This document shows positions 3,860 to 18,798 of a DNA stretch of 64,000 nucleotides, one piece after another (position 1 is the stretch's first letter; each line of letters opens with the position of its first letter). The DNA is from Acidobacteriota bacterium. Its GTDB lineage: Bacteria > Acidobacteriota > Terriglobia > Bryobacterales > Bryobacteraceae. A program made the position numbers and the translations under genes. The notes under the pieces are model-generated. The model was not told the DNA's origin, ran no database searches, and saw nothing but the letters and a program-made list of their open reading frames with translations. Where the stretch lies: the NCBI GenBank assembly GCA_947470805.1, contig CANIVU010000036.1, forward strand, positions 1-64,000. The letters run 5' to 3'.

Positions 3860-5275
3860 ATGGCGCTCACCGGGCTAGTCCAGGAAACATCGTTACATCA
3901 GCGTGCCTCGGGCAGATCACTACCCGTTCAACTCTATTGGGAGATCCGGACCAACATCCTCTCCGGGAAACTACCGCGCGGCAGCCGCGTTCCCGCCTCT
4001 CGCGATATGGCGAGTCTGTACGGTGTATCCCGCGGTACAGTCGTGACGGCGTATGAGCAATTGATCGCGGAGCGCTACCTGCAAGCCCGCAAGGGAACAG
4101 GAACATTCGTCAGCATTAAACTCCCGGAAACACTGCCGCAGGGGGCCTACAAGAGCCGCGCGCTCCCTCCGCCGCAAAAAGAACACGAACGACCTTTTTG
4201 CTTTCACGAACCAGCACTGCGTTCGTTCCCCATGGATGTCTGGGCGCGGGTGGCCGCGAGCCGTTTGCGCCGAGTTCCTACGGAGATGCTTGCTGGAGGG
4301 GACGCCTTTGGATACGCGCCGCTGCGCGAGGCAGTGGTGGACTATCTACACCGGTCTCGCGGCGTGGTTTGTCGGCCGGAGCAGGTAGTCATCACCTCCG
4401 GCACGAATCAATCACTCGACCTGGTGCTTCGGACGATTCTACGGCCGGAGGAAGCCGTCTGGATGGAGGATCCTGGATACCCTGGCGCTGTGGCTGCCTT
4501 GCGGAACGCTGGTGCTCGCGTGGTACCGGTTCGAGTGGACGAATTGGGGTTGGATCCGCGGCACGGTGTGCGCCAGGACCCGGCGGCAACAGCGGTCTAC
4601 CTGACGCCTGCCCGTCAGTTTCCGCTTGGAATGACGATGCCGTTGGAGCGGCGTCTGGCTGTCATTCAATGGGCCCGTCAGGCTCGCGCCTACATTCTTG
4701 AAGACGACTACGACAGCGAGTTTCGCTACGACGGGAAGCCCGTTCCTGCGATGCAGGGATTGGACCCATCCGGCAGAGTGATCCTCATGGGCAGTTTTAA
4801 TGTGACGCTCTTTCCGGCACTCCGCCTGGCGTACATGGTGATCCCGGAGACACTGATTGACCCTGTCCGAACTACGCGCGCCGCCTTGGACCGGTTCCCC
4901 CCGACGCTGGAACAGGCCGTACTCTGCGACTTCCTCACCGATGGCCATTTCAGCCGGCACCTGCGCCAAATGCGAATGCTCTATGGCGCACGCCTGGAAA
5001 CACTGCGGACTGCTTCCGATAGATATTTGAAGGGCGCCGTTTCCCTTCCGGATATCCATTCCGGCTTACATATCCCCGCCCATCTGACCGGGGTTGCCGA
5101 CGCGCGCGTCGTTGAGGACAGGGCATCGAAACAGGGTCTGGACGTATGCGCACTTCAACGCTTTCAAATTCGGCGCCGAGACATCAACGCGCTCCTCTTA
5201 GGCTTTGCCGCCTTCGAGGAGCGCGTTATTCGAGAGGGAGTGCGGAAATTGGCCGCCGTGATCGAGGGCCGTTAA
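3860..5275 (+). CDS. MocR/PdxR-type GntR regulator with degenerate aminotransferase domain
   Basis: This is a transcriptional regulator of the MocR subfamily: an N-terminal GntR winged helix (about 15-90; PASRDMASLYGVSRGTV) fused to a class I aminotransferase domain (about 110-470). The length (471 aa) is normal. Fold signatures are present: SGTNQSLDLV, DPGYPG, and EDDYDSEFRYDG. The PLP-lysine motif, usually TFSKTLFPALRL, here reads SFNVTLFPALRL, with AAT GTG replacing the Ser-Lys codons. The usual SHQFPTG motif reads ARQFPLG. The protein should therefore be unable to form the internal aldimine with PLP. The frame is otherwise intact, so it looks like a functional regulator with a changed or lost effector. 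Its stop overlaps that of the convergent propeller gene. The target is unknown. Confidence 0.85.
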   Translation: MALTGLVQETSLHQRASGRSLPVQLYWEIRTNILSGKLPRGSRVPASRDMASLYGVSRGTVVTAYEQLIAERYLQARKGTGTFVSIKLPETLPQGAYKSRALPPPQKEHERPFCFHEPALRSFPMDVWARVAASRLRRVPTEMLAGGDAFGYAPLREAVVDYLHRSRGVVCRPEQVVITSGTNQSLDLVLRTILRPEEAVWMEDPGYPGAVAALRNAGARVVPVRVDELGLDPRHGVRQDPAATAVYLTPARQFPLGMTMPLERRLAVIQWARQARAYILEDDYDSEFRYDGKPVPAMQGLDPSGRVILMGSFNVTLFPALRLAYMVIPETLIDPVRTTRAALDRFPPTLEQAVLCDFLTDGHFSRHLRQMRMLYGARLETLRTASDRYLKGAVSLPDIHSGLHIPAHLTGVADARVVEDRASKQGLDVCALQRFQIRRRDINALLLGFAAFEERVIREGVRKLAAVIEGR

Positions 5276-6282
5276 TCAGCGAGCGTAGCGGCAATCCGCT
5301 TGGGGTCGAACCGAGTCAACGTATTCGTTTTCGGATTGGCCAGCCAGACGGAGCCGAGTCCGGAATAGACCATTCCGGCACCCTCGCCCGCGAACTGCTG
5401 CACAACCTTCGCGGTGGTTGGGTTGATGCGGGTGATGGGGAATCCGGGAGCGGATACCCAAACCGAACCATCGCCAAAGGCAATATTGCCAGTGGCATTG
5501 GGGATGTTCAGCTCAATCGTCGCCGTCACTTTGTTCGTTTTGGGATCGATTTGAGCCACCTTTCCTTCCTTCTGGGCGAGTACCCAAATGGAAGCTTCCC
5601 CGAAAGCGATCGCGGACGGCGTTCCAGGAACCTCAATTCGCTTATCCACGAGATTGGTTCGCGGGTCGACGCGAAGCACCTTATCCGCGCCCGGGCATGT
5701 AATCCAGAGCGACGTTTCGGCAAACAGTATGGAGTTGCAACCCGTTGCCAAACGGATCTCGGCGACAACGGCATTATCCTTCGGATCAACGCGCGAAAGC
5801 GTCGATTTGTCATCGGACAGGATCCAGATGCTATCGGTACTGGCGGCGATCGCGGGTGCGGCGGTGCCGGTACCGGTCTCAATTGTCTTCTCGATTTTGG
5901 CCGGTTTCAGACTGACCTTGGCCACCGTCTTCGACCCGCAGTTGACGACCCACAGATTCGCCAACGCATTGATCAATCCGCCACAAGCGTTGTTCAAACC
6001 GGCGATTGCCTCACCGGGCTTGTTGGTTTTCGCATCGATGCGCTGCACTGTATTGCCGGCGGCGACCAATGCTTCCGTTGTGAAAGCGACGCCCGAGGGC
6101 GTCGCTTCCAGTTTGATTTCGGCGTCTGATTTCAGCGACGCGAAGGGGATTTGGATGCCGGGCGTTTGCACGCCCGCCACCGGTTTCTTCGCGTTCTTGT
6201 TCTCTTTAGGAGCCGCGGAGGCGGCCAGCAAGCTGGCCACCGTCGCGGTCCGGAGGATGGAAACGAACTGTTTAGAATTCAT
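5272..6282 (-). CDS. Secreted YVTN/NHL-type beta-propeller protein (propeller A)
   Basis: This 336-aa protein has an N-terminal export signal (about 1-23) followed by about six repeats of roughly 45 residues. The repeats carry the IDPKTNKVTATIEL / SIWVLAQ signature typical of YVTN/virginiamycin-B-lyase-like beta-propellers. It is expected in the periplasm or at the cell surface. Its start codon lies inside the 3' end of the TonB-dependent receptor gene (11-bp overlap), so the two are almost certainly co-transcribed and translationally coupled. A clear paralogue (propeller B) follows the symporter gene in the divergent operon. Catalytic lyase residues cannot be assigned by eye. A substrate-binding or receptor-partner role is inference. 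Confidence 0.8.
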   Translation of the reverse strand: MNSKQFVSILRTATVASLLAASAAPKENKNAKKPVAGVQTPGIQIPFASLKSDAEIKLEATPSGVAFTTEALVAAGNTVQRIDAKTNKPGEAIAGLNNACGGLINALANLWVVNCGSKTVAKVSLKPAKIEKTIETGTGTAAPAIAASTDSIWILSDDKSTLSRVDPKDNAVVAEIRLATGCNSILFAETSLWITCPGADKVLRVDPRTNLVDKRIEVPGTPSAIAFGEASIWVLAQKEGKVAQIDPKTNKVTATIELNIPNATGNIAFGDGSVWVSAPGFPITRINPTTAKVVQQFAGEGAGMVYSGLGSVWLANPKTNTLTRFDPKRIAATLAD

Positions 6283-9200
6283 AACGCAAAGCGAACTGCA
6301 TCACGCGGGGAGCCATGACGCCGGTGAACTGGCCGAAGCTGGAGGGGCTTGCGGCGCTGAGGTTGGCCGTTGTGAAGTTCACGTTGTTGAAGGCGTTGAA
6401 GGCCTCCGCGCGAACCTGAATCCGATGACCTTCGAAGGGCATGGTGAAGAACTTGCCCAGCGAGATATCGAAGTTGCTCATGCTGGCGCCGCGCATGATG
6501 GCGCGCGTGCCGGTACCGCCGGGGTACTGCTGCGTAAACGCGCCAGCGGCGGCGATGGTGGTGCGGAACAGGCTGGGGTTGCCGTTCTGGTTGTAGCCGG
6601 TGCCGTTTTCCGGCATCGAAGAGCCGGGTTTCAGAATGGCTAGCGCGCTGGTCAGGTAGTTGGTGGGATAGGAACCGCCGTAGGAGATGTTCTGCGGCAG
6701 ACCCGAACGGTAGCGCCACAGCATCGTGGTCTGCCAGCCGCCAAGCACCTGATTGACGAACTTGTTCGTCCCATTCAGGAAGTGCTTGCCTTTACCGAAC
6801 GGCAGTTCCACGACCATGTTCGCCGTGATGTTGTGCCGCTGATCGAAGTCCGAAGAGCCGCGGAAGGCGTTGACGTTGAACGTGTCCTGAATCACACCAC
6901 CAGCCGTGCCGGCCCCGGATTCGGCGGTCGAAGCGAGATCGATGGAGTGAGACAGGGTGTAGTTGAAGTCAAAGCCCCAGCCGCTGGTGACGGGCCGGCG
7001 GAGAACCAACTGTCCACCGTGGAAGGAGCTGCGGCCGGCGTTGCTCCAGGCAATGTTGCCGGCATTCTGCAACGCGAAGAACGTGTTGCAGCCGAGGACC
7101 GAGATGCACTTTCCATTGGCCTGACGTTCACGATCCATATCGTTGAGGGCGTCCAGATCGGAGCCGTCATAGGTGTTGTAGGTCACGTCGTAGTAGTTCT
7201 GGGTAGCCGTACCGGGGATGTTGTAGCCGGCGGCTCCGGGGAACATGTTTTCGAAGAACGGGATCGGCGGGATTTCGCTCGCCTTTTTCCCCTGCAGGTT
7301 GTAGTTGCGGAGGATGGAGGCGGCCTGCGCCCACGTCTGACCCGACTTCGGATCCTTGAACTGCGTGAGCGGCTGGAAGACGTCCATCTGCACCAGCTGC
7401 TTGCGGCCCAGACGTCCGACGTAGCCGACTTCCACCGTCATCTTGCCGGGAAGCGGACGGGCGTAGCTCATGTTGAGCAACATCGAATACGGCGCGACCA
7501 AGTCCGGGAAGACGCCGGAGAAGGAGCCGAAACCGCCGACGATGGTGGCCGGGGTATAGGGGAACTTCGCGCCGGCAACGGTGGGAAGCGTCGGGAGCGT
7601 GCTGCCGTTGTAGCGGAAGGAGTCGGTGAAGTTGGTGTTGCGCGGCTGGGTCACCGGAGAAGCCAGACCCGGCGAACCGGCGCGGTCGAAGTTGGTCACC
7701 ATGTCCGAGCCGTAGCGGTCATACAGCATCGAACCGCCAACACGAACCACGGAGCCCTTGCCGAACAGTTTGCCCCAGAAGCCGTCGGCCACCGGCGCGT
7801 AAGCCAGGTTCAGGCGGGGCGCCCAGTTGTTGTTGTCGCGCTGGTACCAGCCCGGGCCATTGTTGGCCGGACCGCCCAGAGCGTAGGTCAACGCGGCGTT
7901 CGGCATGGCGGCGCCGGAAACACCGGTCATCGAAGCCTTCACGCGCTCAGCCAGGTAGACGTCCAGGCCGGTGGTCGAGACCACCTGCACACCGTTCTTT
8001 TCGAAAGGCACCTGGTAGCTGCCGTAGCGGAGACCGTAGGTGACGGTCAAATCGCGGCGGACCTTCCAGACGTCCTGCAGGTAGAACTCATACTCGCGGG
8101 TACCGAAGCTGCGGGCCAGCGGCTGGCCGAAGGGAACCGCGTTGCCATCGCGACCGAAGTTGTAGGTGGCGCTGTAGTTGTTGATCAGGCCGAACAGGTT
8201 GCCCATGGCGCGCTGTGTCGGCTGCGTTTCGGACAACGCCAGAGCGGAGTTGCCGGAGCGCTGTTTGACGTAGGCGTTGACGACATCGGAGATGTCAGCA
8301 CCCAGGCCACGCAGCGTGTTGCGGCTGAAGCTGTAGCTGGGGAAGGAGTTGGCAAACGAGCTGCGGTCATTCTGTACCAGGCGGAAGTTGATGCCCGCCT
8401 GCACGGTGTGAGTACCCTTGGTCCAGGTCAGGTCGTTCACCAGGTTGGTGGTCGGAATGATGCGGCCGAAACCGCGTGCCCCGAAGTTCTGAAGAGTGGA
8501 GAGGCCGTCAAACGCGATAGACGTGCCGGGAACACCGGACTGGGCGATGCCGAGCCGGGTGAAGCCATAGCTGAAAACGTTCACGAGCGAAGGAGTCAGC
8601 ACCGCCGTATAGCGGGCAGCCAAGCCCTTGGAGTTGTCCAGAACCTTGGCGGCCGCGTCCTGGCCCGGGAACTGCGCCAGAATTTCGTTGCGGGAGTTGT
8701 CGGCCAGCGTGCCGCGCAACATCAGCGTGTGCTTGGCGGCCTTGTCGAGATTGAAGTCCATCTTCGAAACGTAGGCGCGGTCGTTGCGGGTCAGCGGAGC
8801 GTTGAAGCGGAAGACACCGAAGTTCAAACCACGATCCGAGCCGGAAGCCAGATCGTTCGCCACCGGATAGGAGCCGAGAATGCTCTTCATCGCCGCGCTA
8901 TAACCAATCTTCAGCGGGTCAAGCGCCGTCACTTCGGCCGGTGTCAACTGGCCGACCGTGCCGTTGTTCAAACGGAACTGCACAATGCCCTGCTTCAACG
9001 TTTCCGTCGGCACATTGCGCGACTGGGCGGAAGCGGAGCGATCCTTGCGGTCTTCCCAATTCACAAAGAAGAAGACGCGATCTTTCACAAAACGGCCACC
9101 CAGCGAGGCGCCGTACTGATTGCGGATCAGCGCTTCGCGAGCGATGCCGGCGCGATTGGAGAACCAATCGTTGGCGGCGGTCTTCACATTGCGGTGGAAC

Positions 9201-9928
9201 TCATACAGCGTGCCGTGAAACTGGTTGGAACCACTCTTGGTGACGAGCGAGACCTGCCCACCAGCCGAGCGGCCCTGATCGGCGCCCTGACCGGCGATGG
9301 TCACGCGGAATTCCTGCACGCTGTCCAGCGGCACCGGGAGCGCCGCGTTCAATCCGGCGGAAGTGGTGTTCGCCATACCGGCGGCCTGATTGTCGTTCAC
9401 GTCCACGCCGTCCAGCGTGACGTTGTTCTGGTCGCGCTTGGCGCCCAGCACTTCACCGGTCGAAGTCACACCGGGCTGAATGCTCAGCAGTTCGACGACG
9501 TTGCGGGTCTGGAGCGGAAGCTGGCGCACCTGCACCTGCGAAAACGCATTGCCGACGGTCGCATTTTGCGTGTTGATCTGCGACATTTCTTCGCTGACGT
9601 TCACTACTTCGGACACCTGTCCGAGTTCCAATTTCACGTCCAGCGTGGAGGGCACATTGATGGCCAGCCGTACGTTCGAATGGTACGTGCGGAACCCAGG
9701 ATGCTGGATTTCCACTTTGTACGTTCCGGGCGGCACCTGCAGGAACGAATACGTTCCGGTTGCGTTGACGATTACCTTCCGAGCGGCGGAAGTATCGGTA
9801 TTGGTAATACTGACGACCGCTTCGGTAATAGCGGCCCCCTGTTGATCGGTGACTACGCCCTGCAGCGAACTGCTTTGAGCGAATAACGACAGTAGACTTG
9901 CCGCGAGAAGCAAGGTAATTCTTTTCAA
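6272..9928 (-). CDS. TonB-dependent receptor with carboxypeptidase-regulatory domain
   Basis: This is an outer-membrane receptor of the Oar-like type abundant in Acidobacteria. The order is: signal peptide (about 1-20), carboxypeptidase-regulatory-like Ig domain (about 22-100; GVVTDQQGAAI, PPGTYKVEI), plug (about 120-230; LSIQPGV, TLDGVDVND), and a long beta-barrel ending in a terminal phenylalanine (ALRYEF), the usual barrel-assembly signal. At 1218 aa the length is typical. The start is TTG, chosen because AAGGGG lies 8 nt upstream and no ATG precedes the signal peptide. It leads an operon with propeller A and is divergent from the symporter/carboxylase operon. That context suggests it imports a ligand related to that pathway, which is inference. 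Confidence 0.9.
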   Translation of the reverse strand: MKRITLLLAASLLSLFAQSSSLQGVVTDQQGAAITEAVVSITNTDTSAARKVIVNATGTYSFLQVPPGTYKVEIQHPGFRTYHSNVRLAINVPSTLDVKLELGQVSEVVNVSEEMSQINTQNATVGNAFSQVQVRQLPLQTRNVVELLSIQPGVTSTGEVLGAKRDQNNVTLDGVDVNDNQAAGMANTTSAGLNAALPVPLDSVQEFRVTIAGQGADQGRSAGGQVSLVTKSGSNQFHGTLYEFHRNVKTAANDWFSNRAGIAREALIRNQYGASLGGRFVKDRVFFFVNWEDRKDRSASAQSRNVPTETLKQGIVQFRLNNGTVGQLTPAEVTALDPLKIGYSAAMKSILGSYPVANDLASGSDRGLNFGVFRFNAPLTRNDRAYVSKMDFNLDKAAKHTLMLRGTLADNSRNEILAQFPGQDAAAKVLDNSKGLAARYTAVLTPSLVNVFSYGFTRLGIAQSGVPGTSIAFDGLSTLQNFGARGFGRIIPTTNLVNDLTWTKGTHTVQAGINFRLVQNDRSSFANSFPSYSFSRNTLRGLGADISDVVNAYVKQRSGNSALALSETQPTQRAMGNLFGLINNYSATYNFGRDGNAVPFGQPLARSFGTREYEFYLQDVWKVRRDLTVTYGLRYGSYQVPFEKNGVQVVSTTGLDVYLAERVKASMTGVSGAAMPNAALTYALGGPANNGPGWYQRDNNNWAPRLNLAYAPVADGFWGKLFGKGSVVRVGGSMLYDRYGSDMVTNFDRAGSPGLASPVTQPRNTNFTDSFRYNGSTLPTLPTVAGAKFPYTPATIVGGFGSFSGVFPDLVAPYSMLLNMSYARPLPGKMTVEVGYVGRLGRKQLVQMDVFQPLTQFKDPKSGQTWAQAASILRNYNLQGKKASEIPPIPFFENMFPGAAGYNIPGTATQNYYDVTYNTYDGSDLDALNDMDRERQANGKCISVLGCNTFFALQNAGNIAWSNAGRSSFHGGQLVLRRPVTSGWGFDFNYTLSHSIDLASTAESGAGTAGGVIQDTFNVNAFRGSSDFDQRHNITANMVVELPFGKGKHFLNGTNKFVNQVLGGWQTTMLWRYRSGLPQNISYGGSYPTNYLTSALAILKPGSSMPENGTGYNQNGNPSLFRTTIAAAGAFTQQYPGGTGTRAIMRGASMSNFDISLGKFFTMPFEGHRIQVRAEAFNAFNNVNFTTANLSAASPSSFGQFTGVMAPRVMQFALRYEF

Positions 9929-10063
9929 GTGTTTTCCCCTTAAGATTCGTTCTGCGCGGACAGGAGCGCACGATTCTCAGACGGTGAGGGGAGCCGCGTC
10001 AAGGCGGATACATCTCTCGTGACTAGACGAAAGCAGTTAAGGGGATCATAAGAGATTTCGATT

Positions 10064-10097
10064 TAAGGAGTCAAATAGAAAAGAGCTATACTCCTTA
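10064..10097. promoter_or_regulatory. Inverted repeat in the divergent promoter region
   Basis: TAAGGAGT (10064-10071) and its complement ACTCCTTA (10090-10097) form 8-bp arms 18 bp apart. They lie between the TonB receptor and the symporter operon, where a shared operator would be expected. No known regulator consensus is recognised. Confidence 0.35.
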
Positions 10098-10103
10098 TTC
10101 ACC

Positions 10104-10118
10104 CCGCAGAGTCTGCGG
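10104..10118. promoter_or_regulatory. 15-bp palindrome in the divergent promoter region
   Basis: CCGCAGAGTCTGCGG is a perfect palindrome around a central G. It is a second operator candidate in the 253-bp intergenic region. As RNA it could form only a short 5-bp hairpin. Confidence 0.35.
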
Positions 10119-10144
10119 TCCGCCCCCGTAGCCCATCCCCGGCC

Positions 10145-10189
10145 CCTGTCATCAGCCGGCTTCATTTCAAGGGGTAGTTCCATGACAGG
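10145..10189 (+). promoter_or_regulatory. Leader hairpin that could mask the symporter start codon
   Basis: CCTGTCAT (10145-10152) pairs perfectly with ATGACAGG (10182-10189), which contains the ATG of the symporter gene. The Shine-Dalgarno-like AAGGGGT lies in the 29-nt loop. A start-codon-sequestering stem is possible, but an 8-bp match could be chance. Confidence 0.3.
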
Positions 10190-11606
10190 CATGCTTTGGC
10201 CGGTCGTGATCTTTATGGCCATCTCGCTGGCCATTGGTCTCTATACCTACACGCAAGTGCAGGGTTCCAGCAAACGATATACCGTTTGCGGCAAATCGAT
10301 GCCGTTTCTTGTCGTTGGAACCGCGTTGGCCGCGCAAGCCATCGACGGCAACGCGACGCTCGGCAACACTTCTCTCACGTTTTCAACAGGCTTCTGGGCC
10401 GGAGCGGCCATCCCAATTGGCCTCTGCGCCAGTCTCCTCATCGTCGGCCGCTTCCTGGCAGGTCCACTCAACAAGATGGATTTGTTAACCCTTCCTGAGT
10501 TCTTCTACCGCCGCTACGGCCGCACCGCGGAGTTACTTGCGTCAATTCTGACCATCCTCTGCTTCATCGTCGTCGTCGCCGGCAACCTCTCCGCCGTCGC
10601 ATGGATTCTCTCCGTCGTCAGCGGCTTGAGCTACGGCCAATGCCTGGCCATCGGCACCACGGTCATCCTGCTCTATACAGTCGCCGGCGGTCTCTACGCC
10701 GCCATTTGGACAGACTTCTTCCAAATCCACGTCGCCATCATCGGCTTCGTCTGCGCGGCGGCCTACGTTTTATATACCCGCGGTTGGGGCCCCATCTCCG
10801 CCGCGCTGCCGCCCACCACGCTGAGCATAACCCAGCTCACCACCCTCGCCGGGGGCGGCCTGTCCAACTGGGCCAACATCATTTCCCTGGCCTTCGGCAA
10901 CGCCATGGCGCTGGACTTCATGGAGCGCGTCTTCTCCGCCAAATCCCCGGAAACCGCCAAAAAGGCCTGCTACTACGCGGCCGGGTGGACCATGGTCATC
11001 GGCCTCTCCGCCTCCCTGCTCGGCATGGCAGCGATCTCCGCCATCGGCAAGGTGGAAGACCCGCGCATGGTGCTCCCGATCTTCGCCAGCACCCATCTGC
11101 CCTACTGGATCGGCGTCATGGTCTTCGTCGGCGTCATGGGCGCATCGATGTCCACCGCCAACGGCGCCATGCTCGTCATCTCCGTCGTCATGGCCCGCAA
11201 CGTGTGGCAGCGCTGGAGCACCAAGAAGGTCACCGACGAAACCATGCTCTTCCTCTCCCGCGCATTGGCGCTGCCGACGGCCATCGCCGCCGCCTGGATC
11301 GCCTACGTCCGTCCGGAACCCGGCATTCTATTGGTCGTCGCCTTCGATATCGTCTTCGCCGGCTGCGTGATTCCGCTGTTCTTTGGCGTCTACTGGGCCC
11401 GCGCCACACAGGCCGGCGCTCTGGCCAGTATTCTCACCGGAACCATCGCCCGCGGCATTTGCTATTTCGTGGTCCCGCCCGAATGGGCCGGGCTCGACAC
11501 CCTACTCCCACCCGTATTGAGCGCTGTTGCCTTCGTTGCCGGCAGCCTGCTGACCGAACCGTCCACGGCAGAAAACAACGAGGAACTCCTATGCGATACG
11601 CCGTAA
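10182..11606 (+). CDS. Sodium:solute symporter family (SSS) transporter
   Basis: This is an inner-membrane Na+-coupled symporter of the SSS family with about 13 hydrophobic segments in 474 aa. Family-like stretches include VGTALAAQAIDGNATLG, PLNKMDLLTLPEFFYRRYGR and VAGGLYAAIWTDFFQ. The ATG is preceded by AAGGGGT at 7 nt. It heads the operon symporter, propeller B, two DUF1989 proteins, carboxylase, allophanate hydrolase. The substrate is therefore probably urea, guanidine or a related nitrogen compound. DUR3 urea transporters also belong to the SSS family but are longer. Related carboxylase clusters often use an ABC transporter instead. The exact substrate cannot be read from sequence. Confidence 0.88.
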   Translation: MTGMLWPVVIFMAISLAIGLYTYTQVQGSSKRYTVCGKSMPFLVVGTALAAQAIDGNATLGNTSLTFSTGFWAGAAIPIGLCASLLIVGRFLAGPLNKMDLLTLPEFFYRRYGRTAELLASILTILCFIVVVAGNLSAVAWILSVVSGLSYGQCLAIGTTVILLYTVAGGLYAAIWTDFFQIHVAIIGFVCAAAYVLYTRGWGPISAALPPTTLSITQLTTLAGGGLSNWANIISLAFGNAMALDFMERVFSAKSPETAKKACYYAAGWTMVIGLSASLLGMAAISAIGKVEDPRMVLPIFASTHLPYWIGVMVFVGVMGASMSTANGAMLVISVVMARNVWQRWSTKKVTDETMLFLSRALALPTAIAAAWIAYVRPEPGILLVVAFDIVFAGCVIPLFFGVYWARATQAGALASILTGTIARGICYFVVPPEWAGLDTLLPPVLSAVAFVAGSLLTEPSTAENNEELLCDTP

Positions 11607-12583
11607 TTCTCATGACGGCCGCCGCGCTCTGCGCCCAGGCCCAAGACGCTCCGAAGAAAAAACGTTCTCCCCGGCCGCCGCTCCCCGGCGTCAAAGAAGT
11701 ACAGAAGCCGATGGACCTCGTGAAGCCGGAATTCGTGTTCCCCGTACCCGGCGTGCCCGATTGGACCATCGCGACCAAAGACGGCATCTGGGTTTCCAAC
11801 AAGCCCAAAGGCACGATCTCCAAGCTGGACGCCAAGACGAACACCGTCACGGCCACCGTCGAAGTCGGCAAGCAGCCCTGCAGCGGGATCGCCTACGGCT
11901 TCGGCAGCCTGTGGGCGCCCACCTGCGGCGACAAGACCGTGGCCCGCGTCGACGAAAAGACCAATAAAGTGGTCGCCACCATTCCCGTAGGCCCTGCCAA
12001 CTCCGAAGGCGGTATCACCACCTCCAAGGACGCCGTCTGGATGGCCTCCGGCGCCGATGGCGACAAAGTGGTCCGCATCGACCCGAAGAAGAATAAGGTT
12101 ATCGCCGAAATCCCCGTCCCCGCCGGGTCGCACACCGTCGACTACGGCGATGGCGCCGTCTGGGTGACCCAGTCCAAGGGCAACCTGCTCACCCGCATCG
12201 ACGCCAAAACGAATAAGGTGACCGACAAGATCGAAGTCGGCCCCGGTCCGCGCTTCCTGACTTACGGCGAAGGCTTCGTCTGGACCCTCAACCAGGGCGA
12301 CGGCACGGTTTCCAAGGTGGACCCGAAAACCAAAAAAGTTGTCGCCACCATCCAGTGCGGCCTGCCCGGCGGCGGTGGCGAAATCTCCGCCGGCGGCGGC
12401 GCGGTGTGGATCACGATGTTCCAGATCCCCATCACCCGAATCGACGCCAAGACCGATAAAGTAACCCATCAATACGCCGGCCCGGGCGGCGACGCCATTC
12501 TCTTTGCCCACGGCTCCGTGTGGCTCTCAAACCTGCGTGAACAGAATATTTGGAGGTTAGACGTAGCGAAGATCGCTCCGTAG
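11591..12583 (+). CDS. Secreted YVTN/NHL-type beta-propeller protein (propeller B)
   Basis: This 330-aa protein has a signal peptide (MRYAVILMTAAALCAQAQ) followed by repeats with the motifs SKLDAKTNTVTATVEVG, GIAYGFGSLW and ITRIDAKTDKVTHQY, forming a six- or seven-bladed propeller. The start is the ATG at 11591, inside the last codons of the symporter gene (16-bp overlap). The same frame is open further upstream, but that part is only a shadow of the symporter. It is a paralogue of propeller A, which is coupled in the same way to the TonB receptor gene. Both are expected outside the cytoplasmic membrane. A role in capturing or handing over the transported compound is inference. Confidence 0.85.
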   Translation: MRYAVILMTAAALCAQAQDAPKKKRSPRPPLPGVKEVQKPMDLVKPEFVFPVPGVPDWTIATKDGIWVSNKPKGTISKLDAKTNTVTATVEVGKQPCSGIAYGFGSLWAPTCGDKTVARVDEKTNKVVATIPVGPANSEGGITTSKDAVWMASGADGDKVVRIDPKKNKVIAEIPVPAGSHTVDYGDGAVWVTQSKGNLLTRIDAKTNKVTDKIEVGPGPRFLTYGEGFVWTLNQGDGTVSKVDPKTKKVVATIQCGLPGGGGEISAGGGAVWITMFQIPITRIDAKTDKVTHQYAGPGGDAILFAHGSVWLSNLREQNIWRLDVAKIAP

Positions 12584-12591
12584 CGAAAGTC

Positions 12592-13305
12592 ATGAGTGAA
12601 ACTATCCTGTGGGAAGACCTGCTGCACGGCGGCCAGACCTGGTCGCACGTTCTTGAACCCGGCATGGCTCTGCGGTTGACGGACACAGAAGGGGGCGCGA
12701 ATGTCAGCGCCCTCTTCTATAACGCCCTCCAACCCGAAGAGCGCTACAACATGCCGGACACGCTGAAGGCGCAGCACATCGCCCGGCTCACCAAGGGCTT
12801 CGTGCTCTACTCCGACATGGGCCGCATTCTGTGCTCGGTGACCGACGATTCCGTCGGCTGGCACGACCCGATTGGCGGCACGCTCACCGCCGCCCAGGTC
12901 GCGTCTAAATACGGCGAAAAGCCCTATCAGCAACATCGCAACGACTGGACGCAAGCTTCCAAAGAAGGTCTGCTGCTGGAACTCGCCAAGTACGGCCTGG
13001 GCCCCCGCGACCTCACCCCGACATTGAATTTGTTCAGCAAAGTGCAAGTGGATGAGACCGGCGCGATGAAGTACATCCCCGGCAATTCCAAAGCCGGCGA
13101 TTTTGTAGAGCTGCGGGCGGAGATGAAGGTTCTGATCCTGTTATCGGCCAATCATCATGCCATGGAGCCCGGCGGCGAGTACGCTCCCAAACCCGTGAAG
13201 ATCACGGTGAAGCGCGTGCCGCCTCCGGGCCCCGACGATATCTGCCGCGTGTCCCGGCCCGAAAACGGCCGTGGCTTTGAACTGACTGCGAGGTGCTGCC
13301 GATGA
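12592..13305 (+). CDS. DUF1989 urea-carboxylase-associated protein 1 (probable carboxyguanidine deiminase subunit)
   Basis: This cytoplasmic protein (237 aa) belongs to the DUF1989/UAAP1 family that accompanies urea carboxylase genes. The start is taken as the ATG at 12592 ([10 protein letters not shown]). An in-frame TTG at 12550 would add 14 residues that overlap the propeller gene and do not look coded. Family-like features are [21 protein letters not shown], the [15 protein letters not shown] stretch, and GWHDPIGG. Homologous pairs have been identified as the two-subunit carboxyguanidine deiminase (CgdAB), which turns carboxyguanidine into allophanate. The stop overlaps the next start (ATGA), indicating coupling with its partner. 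The UAAP1/UAAP2 assignment is confident; the guanidine role here is inferred from the family. Confidence 0.85.
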
Positions 13306-13904
13306 GTACGATTTTGGATGTAACGGTGCTGGCCGGAGACGGTTTCAGCGGTGTTGTGAAGAAGGGCCAGACGATGCGCATGATCGATCTGGAAGGCAAT
13401 CAGGCCGCCGACACGCTTCTCTACAACGCCCACGATTTCACCGATCGCTACTCCGCCGTCGATACCATCACCGCCCAGGGCAACATCTACCTCACCAAGG
13501 GCACCAAGCTGATGTCGCAAAACGGCAACGTGCTGATGACCATCACCGAGGACCTCTGCGGCCGCCACGACACCCTCGGCGGCGCCTGCTCGCAGGAGTC
13601 CAATATGGTCCGCTACGACATCGGCAAGCGCTATATGCACGCCTGCCGCCAGACGTTCCTAAAGTACGGCCTCGCCGCGGGTCTCGATAAACGCGACATC
13701 GCCCACAACATCAACTTCTTCATGAACGTGCCTGTCACCCCCGAAGGCAAGCTGACGTTCGAGGACGGCCTCTCCGCCCCCGGCAAGTATCTGGACCTCT
13801 ACGCCAATATGGACACCCTGGTCCTCATTTCCAACTGTCCCCAGTTGAACAACCCCTGCAACGCTTACAACCCCACCCCGATAAGGCTGGTGGTAACGGA
13901 ATAA
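13302..13904 (+). CDS. DUF1989 urea-carboxylase-associated protein 2 (probable carboxyguanidine deiminase subunit)
   Basis: This is the second DUF1989 protein (200 aa, UAAP2 type), translationally coupled to the first by a 4-bp ATGA overlap and to the carboxylase by TAATG. The ATG at 13302 ([14 protein letters not shown]) is chosen over an upstream CTG in the same frame. Typical stretches are [33 protein letters not shown] and [19 protein letters not shown]. The conserved Cys/His positions are consistent with the metal-binding fold of the family. Together with UAAP1 it probably forms the deiminase that acts between the carboxylase and the allophanate hydrolase. Confidence 0.87.
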
Positions 13905-16900
13905 TGTTTAAGAAAGTCCTCATCGCCAACCGCGGCGCCATTGCCAGCCGCATCATTCGCACCCTGCGCCAGATGGGCGTGGGGAGCGTTGCCATCCACT
14001 CTGAAGTCGACGCCGAATCGCTCTTCGTCCGCCAGGCCGACGAAGCCGTCTCCATCGGCGGCCCGCGCGGATACCTCGATGTCGACGCCGTTCTCGCCGC
14101 CGCCAAACAGTCCGGCGCCGAAGCCATTCACCCCGGCTACGGCTTCCTCAGTGAAAACGCGGCGTTCGCCGAAGCCTGCGAAAAAGCAGGGCTCGCCTTC
14201 ATCGGGCCCACGCCACAACAGATGATCGACTTCGGCCTGAAGCATCGCGCCCGCGAACTCGCCAGCGCCGCCGGCGTCGCCATGCTCCCCGGTACCGGCC
14301 TTCTGGAACATGCCAAAGACGCGGCTGTCGTTGGCTTTCCGCTGATGCTCAAATCGACCGCCGGCGGCGGCGGCATCGGCATGCGCGTCTGTCATTCCCG
14401 CGAGGAGTTGGAGGAGGCTTTCGAAGCCATCCAGCGGCTCAGCCAAACGAACTTCAAACAGACCGGGATCTACGCAGAACGCTTCGTCGAAAAAGCCCGC
14501 CACATCGAAGTGCAGATCTTCGGCGACGGCAATGGCCGCGTCGTCGCGCTCGGTGAGCGCGACTGCTCCGCGCAGCGGCGAAATCAAAAAGTGGTGGAGG
14601 AAACTCCCGCACCCGGCCTCTCCAGTACCGCGCGCCAGGAACTCGCCGCTGCCGCCGTCCGCCTCGGCGAATTGGTCTCCTACCGCAACGCCGGCACCGT
14701 TGAATTCATTTACGACGAAACCCGCGGCGAGTTCTACTTCCTCGAAGTAAACACCCGCCTGCAGGTGGAACACGGCGTCACCGAAGAGGTCACCGGCGTC
14801 GACCTCGTCGAATGGATGGTCCGCCTCGCCGCCGGCGAAAGCCCCATCCGGGAAGTCACTCCTTGTGGCGCGTCGATACAGGTGCGCGTCTACGCCGAAT
14901 CGCCGCTCCACGACTTCCGCCCCTGCGCCGGCCCGCTCAGCCACGTCGAGTTTCCGAAGGAAGCCCGCGTCGAAACCTGGGTCGAATCCGGCACCGAAGT
15001 GTCGACGTTCTACGACCCCTTGGTCGCCAAGATCATCGTCAACGGCGCCAACCGTGCCGAGGCCGTCGCCAAGCTCCGCCAGGCGCTCGCCGAAACCGTC
15101 ATCGCCGGCATAGAAACCAACGTCGATTATCTCCGCGCCGTCGTGGGCAGTGATGCCTTCGCCGCCGGTGCCTTCCCCACTTCCCTCCTCCGCAACTTTG
15201 ATTACCAGACCCGCGCCATCGAGGTCCTGGAACCCGGCACGCAAACCACCGTGCAGGACTTCCCGGGCCGCCTCGGCTACTGGCACATCGGCGTGCCGCC
15301 CTCGGGCCCCATTGACGATAAGGCCTTCCGCATCGCCAATGAAATCGTGGGCAACGCCCCCGATGCCGCCGGCCTGGAAATGTCCCTCATCGGGCCGACG
15401 CTCAAATTCCATCACGACGCCGTCATCGCCGCCTCCGGCGCCGACATGGGCATCCCGCGCTGGCAACCGCTCTTCGTCAAGGCCGGCGAAACCATCCGCT
15501 TCACCCCCGTCAACGGCGCCGGCGCGCGTGGCTATCTCGCCATCCGCGGCGGCATCGATGTCCCGCTCTACCTCGGCAGCCGCGCGACATTCATCCTCGG
15601 CAAATTCGGCGGCCGCCACCTCCGCGCGGGCGACCTGCTCCGCTTCAGTACCACCACCATTGCCGAGCCCGCCCCCTGCCAGAACCCGCCCGAATACGGC
15701 AAGGAATGGCAGATCGGCGTCACCTACGGCCCCCACGGCGCGCCCGATTTCTTCACCGAAGAAGACATCGACATGTTCTTCTCGCACGACTGGCGCGTGC
15801 ACTATAACAGCGATCGCACCGGCATCCGCCTCCTCGGTCCCAAGCCGCAGTGGGCGCGCAAGGATGGCGGCGAAGCCGGCCTCCACCCGTCGAATATCCA
15901 CGACAACGCCTACGCCGTAGGCACCGTCGATTTCACCGGCGACATGCCCATCATCCTCGGCCCCGATGGCCCCAGCTGCGGCGGCTTCGTCTGCCCGGCC
16001 ACCATCGTCAAAGACGAACTCTGGAAGATGGGCCAGCTGAAAGCCGGCGACACCGTCCGCTTCATCCGCATCAATAACGAACCCGCCATTCTCCGCGGCG
16101 AAGCCCCCGGCGTCGTCATCCGCGCCGATGGCGATCAGAACCTCCTCGTTGAATTCGGCGCCAATCAGCTCGATTTCGAACTCTCCTTCGCCGCCCACTC
16201 GCTGCGTCGCCAACTGGAAGGAACGCCCGGCATCATCGACCTCACGCCTGGCATCCGCTCCCTCCAGATCCACTACGACAACACGAAAATCAGCCGCGAC
16301 GAACTCTTCGCCCGCATCGACGAAGCACAGGCCCACCCGCTCACCAGCGTGCCCTCGCGCAAGGTCTATCTGCCGCTCTCCTGGGACGATCCGGCCACCC
16401 GCCTCGCCATCGAAAAGTACATGCAAGGCGTCCGTGCCGACGCGCCCTGGTGCCCCTGGAACATCGAGTTCATCCGCCGCATCAACGGCCTGGAATCGGT
16501 GGACGATGTCTTCCGCACCGTCTTCGAAGCCAGCTGGCTGACGCTCGCCCTGGGCGATGTCTACCTCGGCGCGCCGGTGGCAACGCCCATCGATCCCCGC
16601 CACCGGTTAGTAACCACTAAGTACAACCCGGCCCGCACCTGGACCGCCGAAAACTCGGTCGGCATCGGCGGCGCTTATCTCTGCGTCTACGGCATGGAAG
16701 GTCCCGGGGGCTACCAGTTCGTCGGCCGCACAACGCAGATGTGGAAGACCCACCGCCAGCCCAAGCCCTGGCTGCTGGACTTCTTCGATCGTCTCCAGTT
16801 CTACCCCGTCTCGGCCGAAGAGTTGCTGAAGCTCCGCGCCGATCCGAACTTCACCCCGCGCATCGAAGAAGGCGTCTTCAACCTCGCCGAACACCAGGCG

Positions 16901-17260
16901 TTTTTGAAGTCCATCGAAGCCGAAACCATCGCCTTCCAAACAGCGCGCGATCAAGCCTTCCGCGAAGAGCGCGACCGCTGGGGCGAGTACATCGCGCCCG
17001 CGCTCGACGATCTTCCGCCGCCCCCCGAGGACGCCCTGCCTGAGGGCGCCACGGCGGTCCGCTCGCCCATCGCCGCCAGCGTCTGGGCCGTCCCCGGCGA
17101 AACCGGCCAGCACGTCAAAGCCGGCGACAAACTCATCGTACTGGAGGCCATGAAAATGGAGCTCGCCATCACCGCCCCTTCGGCCGGTGAACTCATCGAA
17201 ATGCGCTGCACCCCCGGCGCCATGGTCCAGCCCGGGCAGGTCCTGGCGGTGCTGCGATGA
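13904..17260 (+). CDS. uca: Biotin-dependent urea (or guanidine) carboxylase
   Basis: This is a multidomain ATP- and biotin-dependent carboxylase (1118 aa; usual length about 1200). It has an N-terminal biotin carboxylase (about 1-445; KVLIANRGAIASRI, HPGYGFLSENAAF, STAGGGGIGM, FLEVNTRLQVEHGVTE), a central carboxyltransferase built from KipA- and KipI-like halves (about 450-1000), and a C-terminal biotinyl domain with EAMKME, biotinyl Lys 1084. It makes allophanate from urea, or carboxyguanidine from guanidine. Enzymes encoded next to UAAP1/UAAP2 have in several bacteria proved to prefer guanidine. Substrate preference cannot be decided by eye. The start overlaps the UAAP2 stop (TAATG) and the stop overlaps the hydrolase start (ATGA), so the four genes form one tight unit. 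Confidence 0.93.
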   Translation: MFKKVLIANRGAIASRIIRTLRQMGVGSVAIHSEVDAESLFVRQADEAVSIGGPRGYLDVDAVLAAAKQSGAEAIHPGYGFLSENAAFAEACEKAGLAFIGPTPQQMIDFGLKHRARELASAAGVAMLPGTGLLEHAKDAAVVGFPLMLKSTAGGGGIGMRVCHSREELEEAFEAIQRLSQTNFKQTGIYAERFVEKARHIEVQIFGDGNGRVVALGERDCSAQRRNQKVVEETPAPGLSSTARQELAAAAVRLGELVSYRNAGTVEFIYDETRGEFYFLEVNTRLQVEHGVTEEVTGVDLVEWMVRLAAGESPIREVTPCGASIQVRVYAESPLHDFRPCAGPLSHVEFPKEARVETWVESGTEVSTFYDPLVAKIIVNGANRAEAVAKLRQALAETVIAGIETNVDYLRAVVGSDAFAAGAFPTSLLRNFDYQTRAIEVLEPGTQTTVQDFPGRLGYWHIGVPPSGPIDDKAFRIANEIVGNAPDAAGLEMSLIGPTLKFHHDAVIAASGADMGIPRWQPLFVKAGETIRFTPVNGAGARGYLAIRGGIDVPLYLGSRATFILGKFGGRHLRAGDLLRFSTTTIAEPAPCQNPPEYGKEWQIGVTYGPHGAPDFFTEEDIDMFFSHDWRVHYNSDRTGIRLLGPKPQWARKDGGEAGLHPSNIHDNAYAVGTVDFTGDMPIILGPDGPSCGGFVCPATIVKDELWKMGQLKAGDTVRFIRINNEPAILRGEAPGVVIRADGDQNLLVEFGANQLDFELSFAAHSLRRQLEGTPGIIDLTPGIRSLQIHYDNTKISRDELFARIDEAQAHPLTSVPSRKVYLPLSWDDPATRLAIEKYMQGVRADAPWCPWNIEFIRRINGLESVDDVFRTVFEASWLTLALGDVYLGAPVATPIDPRHRLVTTKYNPARTWTAENSVGIGGAYLCVYGMEGPGGYQFVGRTTQMWKTHRQPKPWLLDFFDRLQFYPVSAEELLKLRADPNFTPRIEEGVFNLAEHQAFLKSIEAETIAFQTARDQAFREERDRWGEYIAPALDDLPPPPEDALPEGATAVRSPIAASVWAVPGETGQHVKAGDKLIVLEAMKMELAITAPSAGELIEMRCTPGAMVQPGQVLAVLR

Positions 17261-18798
17261 AGCCCCCCGTCTGGATCTCCGCGATCCCTGAAAAGCCCGC
17301 GAAACCGGGCCCGTTGAACGGCCTCACCTTCGCCATCAAAGACAACATCGATTACGCCGGCGTGCCCACCACCGCCGGTTGCCCAGCCTACTCCAACACG
17401 CCCGATAAGTCCGCCGCGGTTGTGACGTTGTTCGAAGATGCCGGCGCCCGCGCCATCGGCAAAACGAACCTCGATCAATTCGCCACCGGCCTCGTCGGCG
17501 TGCGCTCGCCCTACGGTGCCTGCGCCAGCGTGTTTAACCCCGAATACATCTCCGGCGGATCATCCTCAGGGTCCGCCGTCGCCGTGGCCAGCGGTCAAGT
17601 GGACTTCTCCCTAGGTACCGACACCGCTGGCTCCGGCCGTGTTCCCGCCGCGTTCAACAACATCTACGGCCTGAAACCAACCAAGGGTGTCCTGTCGAAC
17701 GCGGGCGTTGTCCCCGCCTGCGCCAGCCTCGATTGCGTGTCGATTTTCACCCGCGACGTCCGCACGGTCCAGCGCGTCTACCAGGCGGCCTACCCGCGCA
17801 CCACCACACCCGCCTGGGCCGCGGGCGCCTTCCGCTTCGGCGTTCCGGCCGCCGAGCATCTGCAGTTCTTCGGTGACGATGCCGCCGCCGCGCTCTACGA
17901 ATCGGCGATCAAGAAGTTGGAGGCTGCCGGTGGCCAGAAGGTGGTGATCGATTACGCCCCCTTCCGGGACACCGCGCAATTGCTCTATAGCGGCCCCTGG
18001 GTCGCCGAGCGCTATGTAGCAGTGGGCGGCTTCCTGGAAGGTCATCCCAACGACGCCCACCCAGTGGCCAAGAACATCATCCTCGGGGGCAAGAACTATT
18101 CCGCCGCCGACACGTTCAAGGCCATGTATAAGCTGGAAGAGTACAAGGCCGAAACCCTGAAGACGTGGAAGAGCATCGACGTCATGCTCCTCCCCACCAC
18201 CGGCACGACGTACAAGATCAGCGAAGTGGAAGCCGACCCGGTGAAGCTCAATTCCAACCTCGGCTACTACACCAACTTCGTCAACCTGCTCGATCTCGCC
18301 GCCTTCGCCATACCCGCCGGCTTCCGTCCGAACGGCCTGCCCTTCGGCGTCACGCTCATCGGCCAGGCGCATTCGGACTGGGGGCTGCTCGATCTGGCCG
18401 CCCGTCTGGAGGAGGTGAAGGTCACCGTCGTCGGTGCTCATCTCACCGGCCAGCCGCTCAATAAGCAGCTCACCGAACGCGGCGCGCGGTTGATCAAAAC
18501 CTGTAAAACGGCCAATGATTACCGCCTCTACGCGCTCGCCAACACCACGCCGCCTAAGCCCGGCCTGGTCCGCGAACCCGGCTACGCAGGGCCCGGTATT
18601 GAAGTGGAAGTCTGGGGCATGCCCGCGCAAAATCTTGGCAGCTTCCTGGCGCTCATCCCGTCCCCGCTCGGTCTCGGATCGCTCACGCTTGATGACGGCA
18701 CCACTGCCACGGGCTTCATCTGCGAACCTGCCGGCCTCGCCGGGGCCAAGGAGATCACCCATCTCGGCGGCTGGCGCGCCTACTTGGCGAACAAATAA
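17257..18798 (+). CDS. atzF: Allophanate hydrolase (amidase signature family)
   Basis: This enzyme hydrolyses allophanate to ammonia and CO2 and closes the pathway started by the carboxylase. The amidase domain (about 1-420) has the Ser-cisSer-Lys triad: Lys28 (FAIKDN), the GGSSSGS run at 100-106 for the cis-Ser, and nucleophile Ser126 in DTAGSGRVPA. A shortened C-terminal domain (about 425-513; YALANTTPPKPGLVR, GGWRAYL) matches the allophanate hydrolase C-terminal domain that decarboxylates the N-carboxycarbamate intermediate. At 513 aa it is smaller than the usual roughly 600. The start overlaps the carboxylase stop. The 3' end overlaps the convergent hydrolase gene by 19 bp. Confidence 0.93.
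   Translation: MKPPVWISAIPEKPAKPGPLNGLTFAIKDNIDYAGVPTTAGCPAYSNTPDKSAAVVTLFEDAGARAIGKTNLDQFATGLVGVRSPYGACASVFNPEYISGGSSSGSAVAVASGQVDFSLGTDTAGSGRVPAAFNNIYGLKPTKGVLSNAGVVPACASLDCVSIFTRDVRTVQRVYQAAYPRTTTPAWAAGAFRFGVPAAEHLQFFGDDAAAALYESAIKKLEAAGGQKVVIDYAPFRDTAQLLYSGPWVAERYVAVGGFLEGHPNDAHPVAKNIILGGKNYSAADTFKAMYKLEEYKAETLKTWKSIDVMLLPTTGTTYKISEVEADPVKLNSNLGYYTNFVNLLDLAAFAIPAGFRPNGLPFGVTLIGQAHSDWGLLDLAARLEEVKVTVVGAHLTGQPLNKQLTERGARLIKTCKTANDYRLYALANTTPPKPGLVREPGYAGPGIEVEVWGMPAQNLGSFLALIPSPLGLGSLTLDDGTTATGFICEPAGLAGAKEITHLGGWRAYLANK

What the first reader, a model, noticed from the sequence alone, without database searches (positions are those of the whole stretch)
5272..18798. Divergent locus with two transporter-propeller pairs feeding a urea/guanidine pathway
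A TonB receptor is followed by a secreted propeller (11-bp overlap). Divergently, an SSS symporter is followed by a paralogous secreted propeller (16-bp overlap), then UAAP1/UAAP2, carboxylase and allophanate hydrolase. The same [transporter + propeller] unit thus occurs at both membranes. The coupling and paralogy are seen in the sequence; the enzyme roles are family knowledge. That the propellers act as periplasmic substrate carriers or receptor lids for a nitrogen compound is inference. I know of no described uptake system of this form.
Basis: partly seen in the sequence, partly recalled or inferred. Interest (0 to 1): 0.75.

Follow-up and report, generated by a model that had tools for sequence, protein, structure and literature searches.

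The report
Guanidine-scavenging locus with twin propellers
This stretch of an acidobacterial genome joins the known pathway that turns guanidine into ammonia to an outer-membrane receptor, a sodium-coupled importer and two related secreted propeller proteins; in related genomes these propellers track the genes for breaking down guanidine, which points to an undescribed capture system for this nitrogen source.

Summary
In detail: coordinates, the 11-bp and 16-bp overlaps and the propeller paralogy (34-35% identity). The pathway is guanidine, not urea: the carboxylase has Asp at the residue that separates the two (D676). Of 257 genomes of the order, 88 have the propellers and 68 have UAAP1 (a carboxyguanidine deiminase subunit); 66 of the 68 have propellers. 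Seven more propeller genomes lack UAAP1 but carry guanidinase, the other guanidine route. SSS and a urea/guanidine-type ABC transporter never co-occur; 62 of 68 UAAP1 genomes have exactly one, so SSS is probably the guanidine importer here. The strict 'one propeller per transporter' reading weakens: propB lies beside a diheme PSD1 protein in 37 of 53 cases and beside a TonB receptor in 18; propA is tandem with propB in 22 of 70 and beside SSS in 18. I read the set as an extracytoplasmic capture and processing module for guanidine or a larger guanidino compound. Ligand and propeller role are inferred; there is no biochemistry. In 13 propeller genomes no intact guanidine route was found, and no control gene was run.

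The parts
5272..6282 (-). propB: secreted 7-bladed YVTN/DUF5074-type propeller
   Evidence: AlphaFold2 model mean pLDDT 89
6272..9928 (-). TonB-dependent (Oar-like) receptor, OMP_b-brl_4 with N-terminal CarboxypepD_reg; 11-bp overlap with propB; 63% identical to a second receptor beside the PSD1 orthologue on contig C181
9929..10181 (.). divergent intergenic region; a block at about 10060-10110 is conserved in most of 12 other loci aligned, with a TATAAT/TATACT-like element ahead of SSS; no riboswitch match
10182..11606 (+). sodium:solute symporter (SSF); proposed inner-membrane guanidine importer
11591..12583 (+). propA: secreted 7-bladed propeller, paralogue of propB; 16-bp overlap with SSS
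   Evidence: AlphaFold2 model mean pLDDT 92
12592..13305 (+). UAAP1 (DUF1989), one subunit of a carboxyguanidine deiminase
13293..13904 (+). UAAP2 (DUF1989), other subunit of a carboxyguanidine deiminase
13904..17260 (+). biotin-dependent guanidine carboxylase; D676 at the position of K. lactis N1330, D885 at that of D1584
17257..18798 (+). allophanate hydrolase

Best explanation
A guanidine-scavenging locus. Shown from sequence: a complete guanidine carboxylase pathway (guanidine -> carboxyguanidine -> allophanate -> ammonia + CO2) in one run with an SSS symporter and a secreted propeller (propA), divergent from a TonB receptor and a paralogous propeller (propB). Shown by comparison: across the order the propellers track the genes of guanidine catabolism by either known route, and SSS takes the place of the usual ABC transporter. 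Inferred: a TonB receptor of this subfamily brings guanidine, or more likely a larger guanidino compound, into the periplasm. PropA and propB act there as soluble extracytoplasmic binding partners, probably together with the diheme PSD1 protein and the apparently Tat-exported DUF1501 protein that often sit beside propB (in this genome the PSD1 orthologue is on contig C181 next to a second receptor of the same subfamily). Guanidine released or handed over is then imported by SSS and degraded to three ammonia. Likelihood by step: guanidine pathway about 0.95; SSS imports guanidine about 0.7; propeller/TonB module serves guanidine or a guanidino compound about 0.7; propellers bind substrate or enzyme rather than act as catalysts about 0.6; periplasmic processing by PSD1/DUF1501 about 0.35.
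For: Carboxylase has D676 and D885, the two residues that PMC11410670 requires for guanidine carboxylase; UAAP1, UAAP2 and AH are above curated cut-offs. In 257 genomes: propellers 88, UAAP1 68, both 66 (Fisher 2.5e-39); by genus 22 of 22 UAAP1 genera have propellers, against 7 of 62 others (1.7e-14). Inside genus g33 (19 genomes) the same 12 have both and 7 have neither; in g1, 11 both, 2 propeller only, 6 neither of 19. 7 of the 8 guanidinase genomes have propellers and none of the 8 has UAAP1; that enzyme's best solved matches are the guanidinases 7ESR/7OI1 and 9FEK. SSS and ABC: 0 genomes with both at my thresholds; of 68 UAAP1 genomes 32 SSS, 30 ABC, 6 neither. The only SSS genome outside the family (G044) has guanidinase instead of UAAP1. 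UAAP1 lies within 25 kb of a propeller in 36 of 66 genomes (lower bound), in several different arrangements. propB has PSD1 within 500 bp in 37 of 53 and TonB in 18 of 53. Both propellers model as confident 7-bladed propellers with BtuG and YncE among the solved matches.
Against: 15 of 88 propeller genomes gave no UAAP1 or guanidinase hit; locus reading shows a carboxylase in 2 of them (G187, G251) and a broken one in G011, leaving 12 with none and 13 without an intact route, some nearly complete (G156, 99%). Three SSS genomes (G001, G012, G112; 92, 58 and 79% complete) have neither UAAP1 nor guanidinase, and 6 UAAP1 genomes have neither importer. Six genus mates carry the guanidine genes on other contigs than the propellers (L086-L089, L094, L095). 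G044, G058, G209 and G246 carry guanidine genes without close propellers. No guanidine riboswitch in window 1-30000 or in 21 relatives' loci. Guanidine is small enough to pass porins (recalled), so TonB uptake of guanidine itself would be odd. PSD1 has many paralogues per genome (173 matching stretches in the window's own), so its neighbourhood says little about substrate. The statistics do not correct for shared ancestry beyond the genus counts, and no control gene of similar prevalence was run.
Confidence: 0.6

Rival explanations
1. Receptor-lid model: propB caps the TonB receptor and hands substrate through it, as BtuG does for BtuB and XusB for XusA; propA does a similar job in front of SSS.
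For: TonB-propB gene overlap of 11 bp in the window; TonB within 500 bp of propB in 18 of 53, upstream on the same strand in 14. Propeller-capped TonB transporters are shown in Bacteroides (passages). BtuG structures are among the first fold matches of propA (ranks 3, 5, 6), and the family profile reaches BtuG chains at E 8e-5 to 3e-4.
Against: Both propellers have plain signal peptides without a lipobox (by eye), whereas BtuG and XusB are lipid-anchored. propB lies close to PSD1 twice as often as to TonB. The best fold match of both propellers is an archaeal surface-layer protein, and many unrelated propellers match as well, so the fold match is weak evidence.
Confidence: 0.2
2. Neighbour by accident: propellers, TonB and PSD1/DUF1501 form a module for some other substrate that merely shares genomic islands or ancestry with guanidine genes in this family.
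For: 12 propeller genomes show no guanidine route at all; in six genus mates the two sets are on different contigs. PSCyt/PSD genes are numerous and of unknown function, with carbohydrate links proposed (passages of PMC5615132).
Against: Presence and absence agree even where the genes are unlinked, within two genera, and for two unrelated guanidine enzymes.
Confidence: 0.15
3. The pathway is for urea (urea carboxylase + allophanate hydrolase), not guanidine.
For: Family names in the databases say urea; the ABC binding protein model is named putative urea ABC transporter.
Against: Asp, not Asn, at the K. lactis 1330 position; the two-subunit DUF1989 pair is present; seven propeller genomes without UAAP1 carry guanidinase, and at least two of those loci also hold urease genes.
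Confidence: 0.04

Closest known systems
Guanidine carboxylase pathway (guanidine carboxylase, carboxyguanidine deiminase CgdAB, allophanate hydrolase)
   Same: All enzymes and both diagnostic Asp residues are present.
   Different: The described systems use an ABC or APC importer and often a guanidine riboswitch (passages); here SSS, no riboswitch found, plus TonB receptor and two secreted propellers.
BtuBG vitamin B12 and XusAB siderophore uptake in Bacteroides (TonB transporter with propeller lid)
   Same: TonB transporter gene coupled to a secreted 7-bladed propeller gene; similar fold.
   Different: Those propellers are surface lipoproteins; here no lipobox by eye, a receptor of the OMP_b-brl_4 kind, a second propeller by the inner-membrane symporter, and a nitrogen pathway.
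E. coli YncE (periplasmic propeller; its neighbour YncD is a TonB receptor; both facts recalled)
   Same: YVTN-type propeller; profile match E 8e-10.
   Different: About 13% identity in the fold alignment; no link to guanidine known to me.
PSCyt/PSD + neighbouring unknown genes of Planctomycetes and Verrucomicrobia (here PSD1 + DUF1501)
   Same: Frequent neighbours of propB are of this kind.
   Different: Function unknown in PMC5615132 (passages read); here a subset lies with propellers and guanidine genes.

Membership tests
Guanidine carboxylase pathway | Asp at K. lactis urea carboxylase position 1330 (Asn in urea carboxylases) and conserved Asp at 1584 | tested here: met
   D676 and D885 in the window protein by alignment to 5i8i; criterion from PMC11410670
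Guanidine carboxylase pathway | Two DUF1989 subunits (CgdA, CgdB) and allophanate hydrolase | tested here: met
   TIGR03425 309.6 bits (cut-off 205.95), TIGR03424 320.7 (284.7), TIGR02713 716.8 (511.05); not placed on a CgdA/CgdB tree, which PMC11410670 used to define them
Guanidine carboxylase pathway | Guanidine riboswitch control (common, not defining) | tested here: not met
   No Rfam match at gathering score in window 1-30000 and no guanidine riboswitch in 21 related loci
BtuG/XusB-type propeller-capped TonB transporter | Seven-bladed propeller encoded with a TonB-dependent transporter | tested here: met
   Models with pLDDT 89 and 92; 11-bp gene overlap
BtuG/XusB-type propeller-capped TonB transporter | Lipoprotein signal for surface anchoring | tested here: not met
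   N-termini read by eye show plain signal peptides without a lipobox; no signal-peptide program was used
BtuG/XusB-type propeller-capped TonB transporter | Propeller sits on the receptor as a lid and binds the ligand | not testable with these tools
   Needs a complex structure or binding assay
SSS guanidine importer (proposed) | SSF family membership | tested here: met
   PF00474 116.1 bits against cut-off 22.8
SSS guanidine importer (proposed) | Transport of guanidine | tested here: inconclusive
   Mutual exclusion with the ABC transporter and co-occurrence with guanidine enzymes, three SSS genomes without either route; no transport data

The most novel reading that the evidence does not exclude
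Bryobacteraceae use a TonB receptor, two paralogous soluble propellers and a diheme PSD1/DUF1501 pair to capture a larger guanidino compound and oxidatively release guanidine in the periplasm. SSS or ABC imports the guanidine to either guanidine carboxylase or guanidinase. This would be the first TonB-linked guanidine acquisition system and a first substrate for a PSD1/DUF1501 pair.
Probability: 0.3. Interest if true: 0.85.

Novelty: new variant of a known kind. Interest (0 to 1): 0.62.

Why it matters
The natural origin of environmental guanidine is called an open question in PMC12186494 (passages read). An outer-membrane receptor tied to guanidine catabolism would suggest that a larger guanidino compound, not free guanidine, is the real substrate, and would make it findable by binding assays. 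It would also give a first testable substrate for the large PSD1/DUF1501 families, whose function is unknown in the passages I read, and add SSS symporters to the candidate guanidine importers.

Tried and rejected
Urea as substrate: rejected on the D676 residue and the guanidinase genomes. Guanidine riboswitch control: none found. The MocR/PdxR-like gene 3860-5275 as regulator: it is convergent with propB and no relative's locus printed showed it, though many are cut short; left out. First impression, that propeller loci in genus mates have no nitrogen genes and the link is a local accident: overturned by the order-wide counts. Vitamin B12 uptake by analogy with BtuBG: no cobalamin riboswitch matched in window 1-30000 and nothing else points to it. 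The conserved Trp of each blade as a ligand site: dropped because I recall that position as structural in YVTN repeats; not tested.

Papers: search listings; passages only of PMC11410670, PMC12186494, PMC13142918, PMC10404256, PMC5615132 and PMC11399263. 'carboxyguanidine' with 'TonB', 'guanidine carboxylase' with 'Acidobacteri', and 'guanidine' with 'outer membrane receptor' and 'urea carboxylase' each gave 0 papers. I made no paper search for SSS symporters with guanidine, nor for DUF1501 or PSD1 with guanidine.

In one search TonB, PSD1 and DUF1501 hits under 38% identity, propeller fragments under 500 bp and duplicates were dropped before counting, and loci cut by contig ends count as lacking a neighbour.
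Full report
What is there. The window lies in an 8.7-Mb genome (G000) whose kin are titled Acidobacteria, Bryobacterales, Bryobacteraceae and the like. It holds exactly the genes described: TonB receptor and propB on the - strand sharing 11 bp; divergently SSS and propA sharing 16 bp, then UAAP1, UAAP2, carboxylase and allophanate hydrolase. propA and propB are each other's only close relatives in the genome, 34-35% identical. Both carry a signal peptide without a lipobox (by eye) and an invariant or nearly invariant Cys pair (propA C97/C112), and both model as 7-bladed propellers with mean pLDDT 89 and 92.

Which substrate. The carboxylase has D676 where K. lactis urea carboxylase has N1330, and D885 at D1584. 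PMC11410670 (passages) uses exactly these two residues to call guanidine carboxylases. With the DUF1989 pair and allophanate hydrolase above curated cut-offs, the pathway is guanidine carboxylation, not urea. In six genus mates, and in a fragment from a seventh, the same VDFTGDMP motif is found, and IDFTGDMP in the class-level relative G058.

First look at relatives. In 61 genomes, several genus mates carry SSS-MBL-propA-MarC at one place and TonB-propB-PSD1-DUF1501 at another, with the guanidine genes on other contigs, mostly between a 650-aa gene that I labelled acs-like by recall and a 261-aa gene. That spoke against a link. Named loci from genome contigs (65 loci) turned it round: L097-L106 and L151 show the divergent TonB/SSS arrangement with the guanidine genes, in several with PSD1 next to propB; L107, L110 and L141 show other arrangements with guanidine genes and propellers.

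Order-wide counts, 257 genomes each. propA query, E <= 1e-40: 88. UAAP1, E <= 1e-50: 68. SSS, E <= 1e-120: 36. ABC binding protein (TIGR03427 type), E <= 1e-60: 40. Guanidinase, E <= 1e-80: 8. UAAP1 and propellers: 66 both, 2 UAAP1 only (G209, G246), 22 propeller only, 167 neither. Genus g33: 12 both, 7 neither of 19; genus g1: 11 both, 2 propeller only, 6 neither of 19. By genus, 22 of 22 UAAP1 genera have propellers and 7 of the other 62 do. Adding guanidinase: 73 both, 3 route only (G044, G209, G246), 15 propeller only, 166 neither. Of those 15, locus reading found a carboxylase in G187 and G251 and a broken one in G011; 12 remain with none (G001, 087, 092, 110, 112, 140, 147, 156, 199, 200, 203, 226), some of them incomplete genomes.

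Two importers, two enzymes, one propeller set. SSS and ABC never occur together in the 257 at these thresholds; among 68 UAAP1 genomes 32 have SSS, 30 ABC and 6 neither. Ten ABC genomes lack UAAP1 and all ten have propellers. In seven of these an arginase-family enzyme lies near the ABC genes; for the one tested (L241) the best solved matches are the guanidinases of Synechocystis (7ESR/7OI1) and N. inopinata (9FEK), and the others are 87-89% identical to it. Urease genes follow in at least two loci (L239, L246). The one SSS genome outside the family, G044, has guanidinase and no UAAP1; three other SSS genomes (G001, G012, G112) have neither route. No genome has both guanidinase and UAAP1. So the propellers follow the compound rather than one enzyme set.

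Neighbours of the propellers. Among 123 non-redundant propellers (70 A, 53 B) in 138 loci: propB has PSD1 within 500 bp in 37 of 53, propA in 22, TonB in 18. propA has propB within 500 bp in 22 of 70, SSS in 18, UAAP1 in 16, PSD1 in 11, MBL in 8. Many of these loci were picked because UAAP1 was near, so the UAAP1 figure is biased; the unpicked figure is 36 of 66 genomes with UAAP1 within 25 kb of a propeller, a lower bound because match lists were cut. The two PSD1 proteins checked carry two CxxCH motifs each, and DUF1501 an N-terminal RR motif of Tat type by eye. The window genome has many PSD1 relatives (173 matching stretches), but one clear orthologue (68%, 1584 bits against 637 for the next), on C181 beside a receptor 63% identical to the window's.

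Mechanism. The safest reading is that receptor, propellers and often PSD1 and DUF1501 are an extracytoplasmic module for guanidine or a guanidino compound, that SSS imports guanidine, and that the pathway yields ammonia. A TonB receptor for free guanidine would be odd, which favours a larger compound that is processed outside the cytoplasm; this step is inference. Whether the propellers cap the receptor (BtuG, XusB: passages), serve the PSD1/DUF1501 pair, or carry substrate cannot be settled from sequence. Fold matches are led by an archaeal surface-layer protein and include BtuG, and for propB YncE, but also many unrelated propellers.

Novelty. Known parts: the pathway and the idea of a propeller-assisted TonB transporter. 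The searches that I made of the held library for TonB or outer-membrane receptors, or Acidobacteria, with this pathway gave no paper, and a listing for guanidine with Bryobacter showed nothing on it by title. I did not search for SSS or for PSD1/DUF1501 with guanidine, and most papers of subscription journals are not in that library.

Noticed in passing
L241:7739-9415(+), L239:4978-6711(-), L240:13635-15422(+): A protein of about 518-631 aa (ORF lengths) follows the guanidinase in all 7 propeller-genome loci read. Three were scanned against Pfam and one against NCBIfam, without a match; by eye its halves recall CbiX-like and DUF362-like proteins (recalled, untested). It could be a metal-loading partner.
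   Followed up: partly
L115:5877-6530(-); cluster c0: A secreted protein of about 205-230 aa with an HExxH motif and no Pfam match (one member scanned) recurs in 22 of 78 loci, often near propA; some of these loci are the same genome twice.
   Followed up: partly
L040:8740-9546(+); L092, L117, L187, L219, L240, L241: A metallo-beta-lactamase-fold protein with an apparent signal peptide recurs beside SSS, the ABC genes, DUF1501 or propA, so it may belong to the same module; three relatives lie elsewhere in the window's genome.
   Followed up: partly
G000 (whole genome), query L206:14503-17775: Very many PSD1-type proteins in one genome: 173 matching stretches, several per gene.
   Followed up: no
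L239:2351-2655(+), L246:17716-18015(-): Rfam 5_ureB_sRNA matches antisense within the urease alpha gene, outside the hosts that I recall for it; possibly a match to conserved coding sequence.
   Followed up: no
window 3860-5275(+): MocR/PdxR-like regulator convergent with propB, ends overlapping by 4 bp; not seen in the relatives' loci printed.
   Followed up: partly
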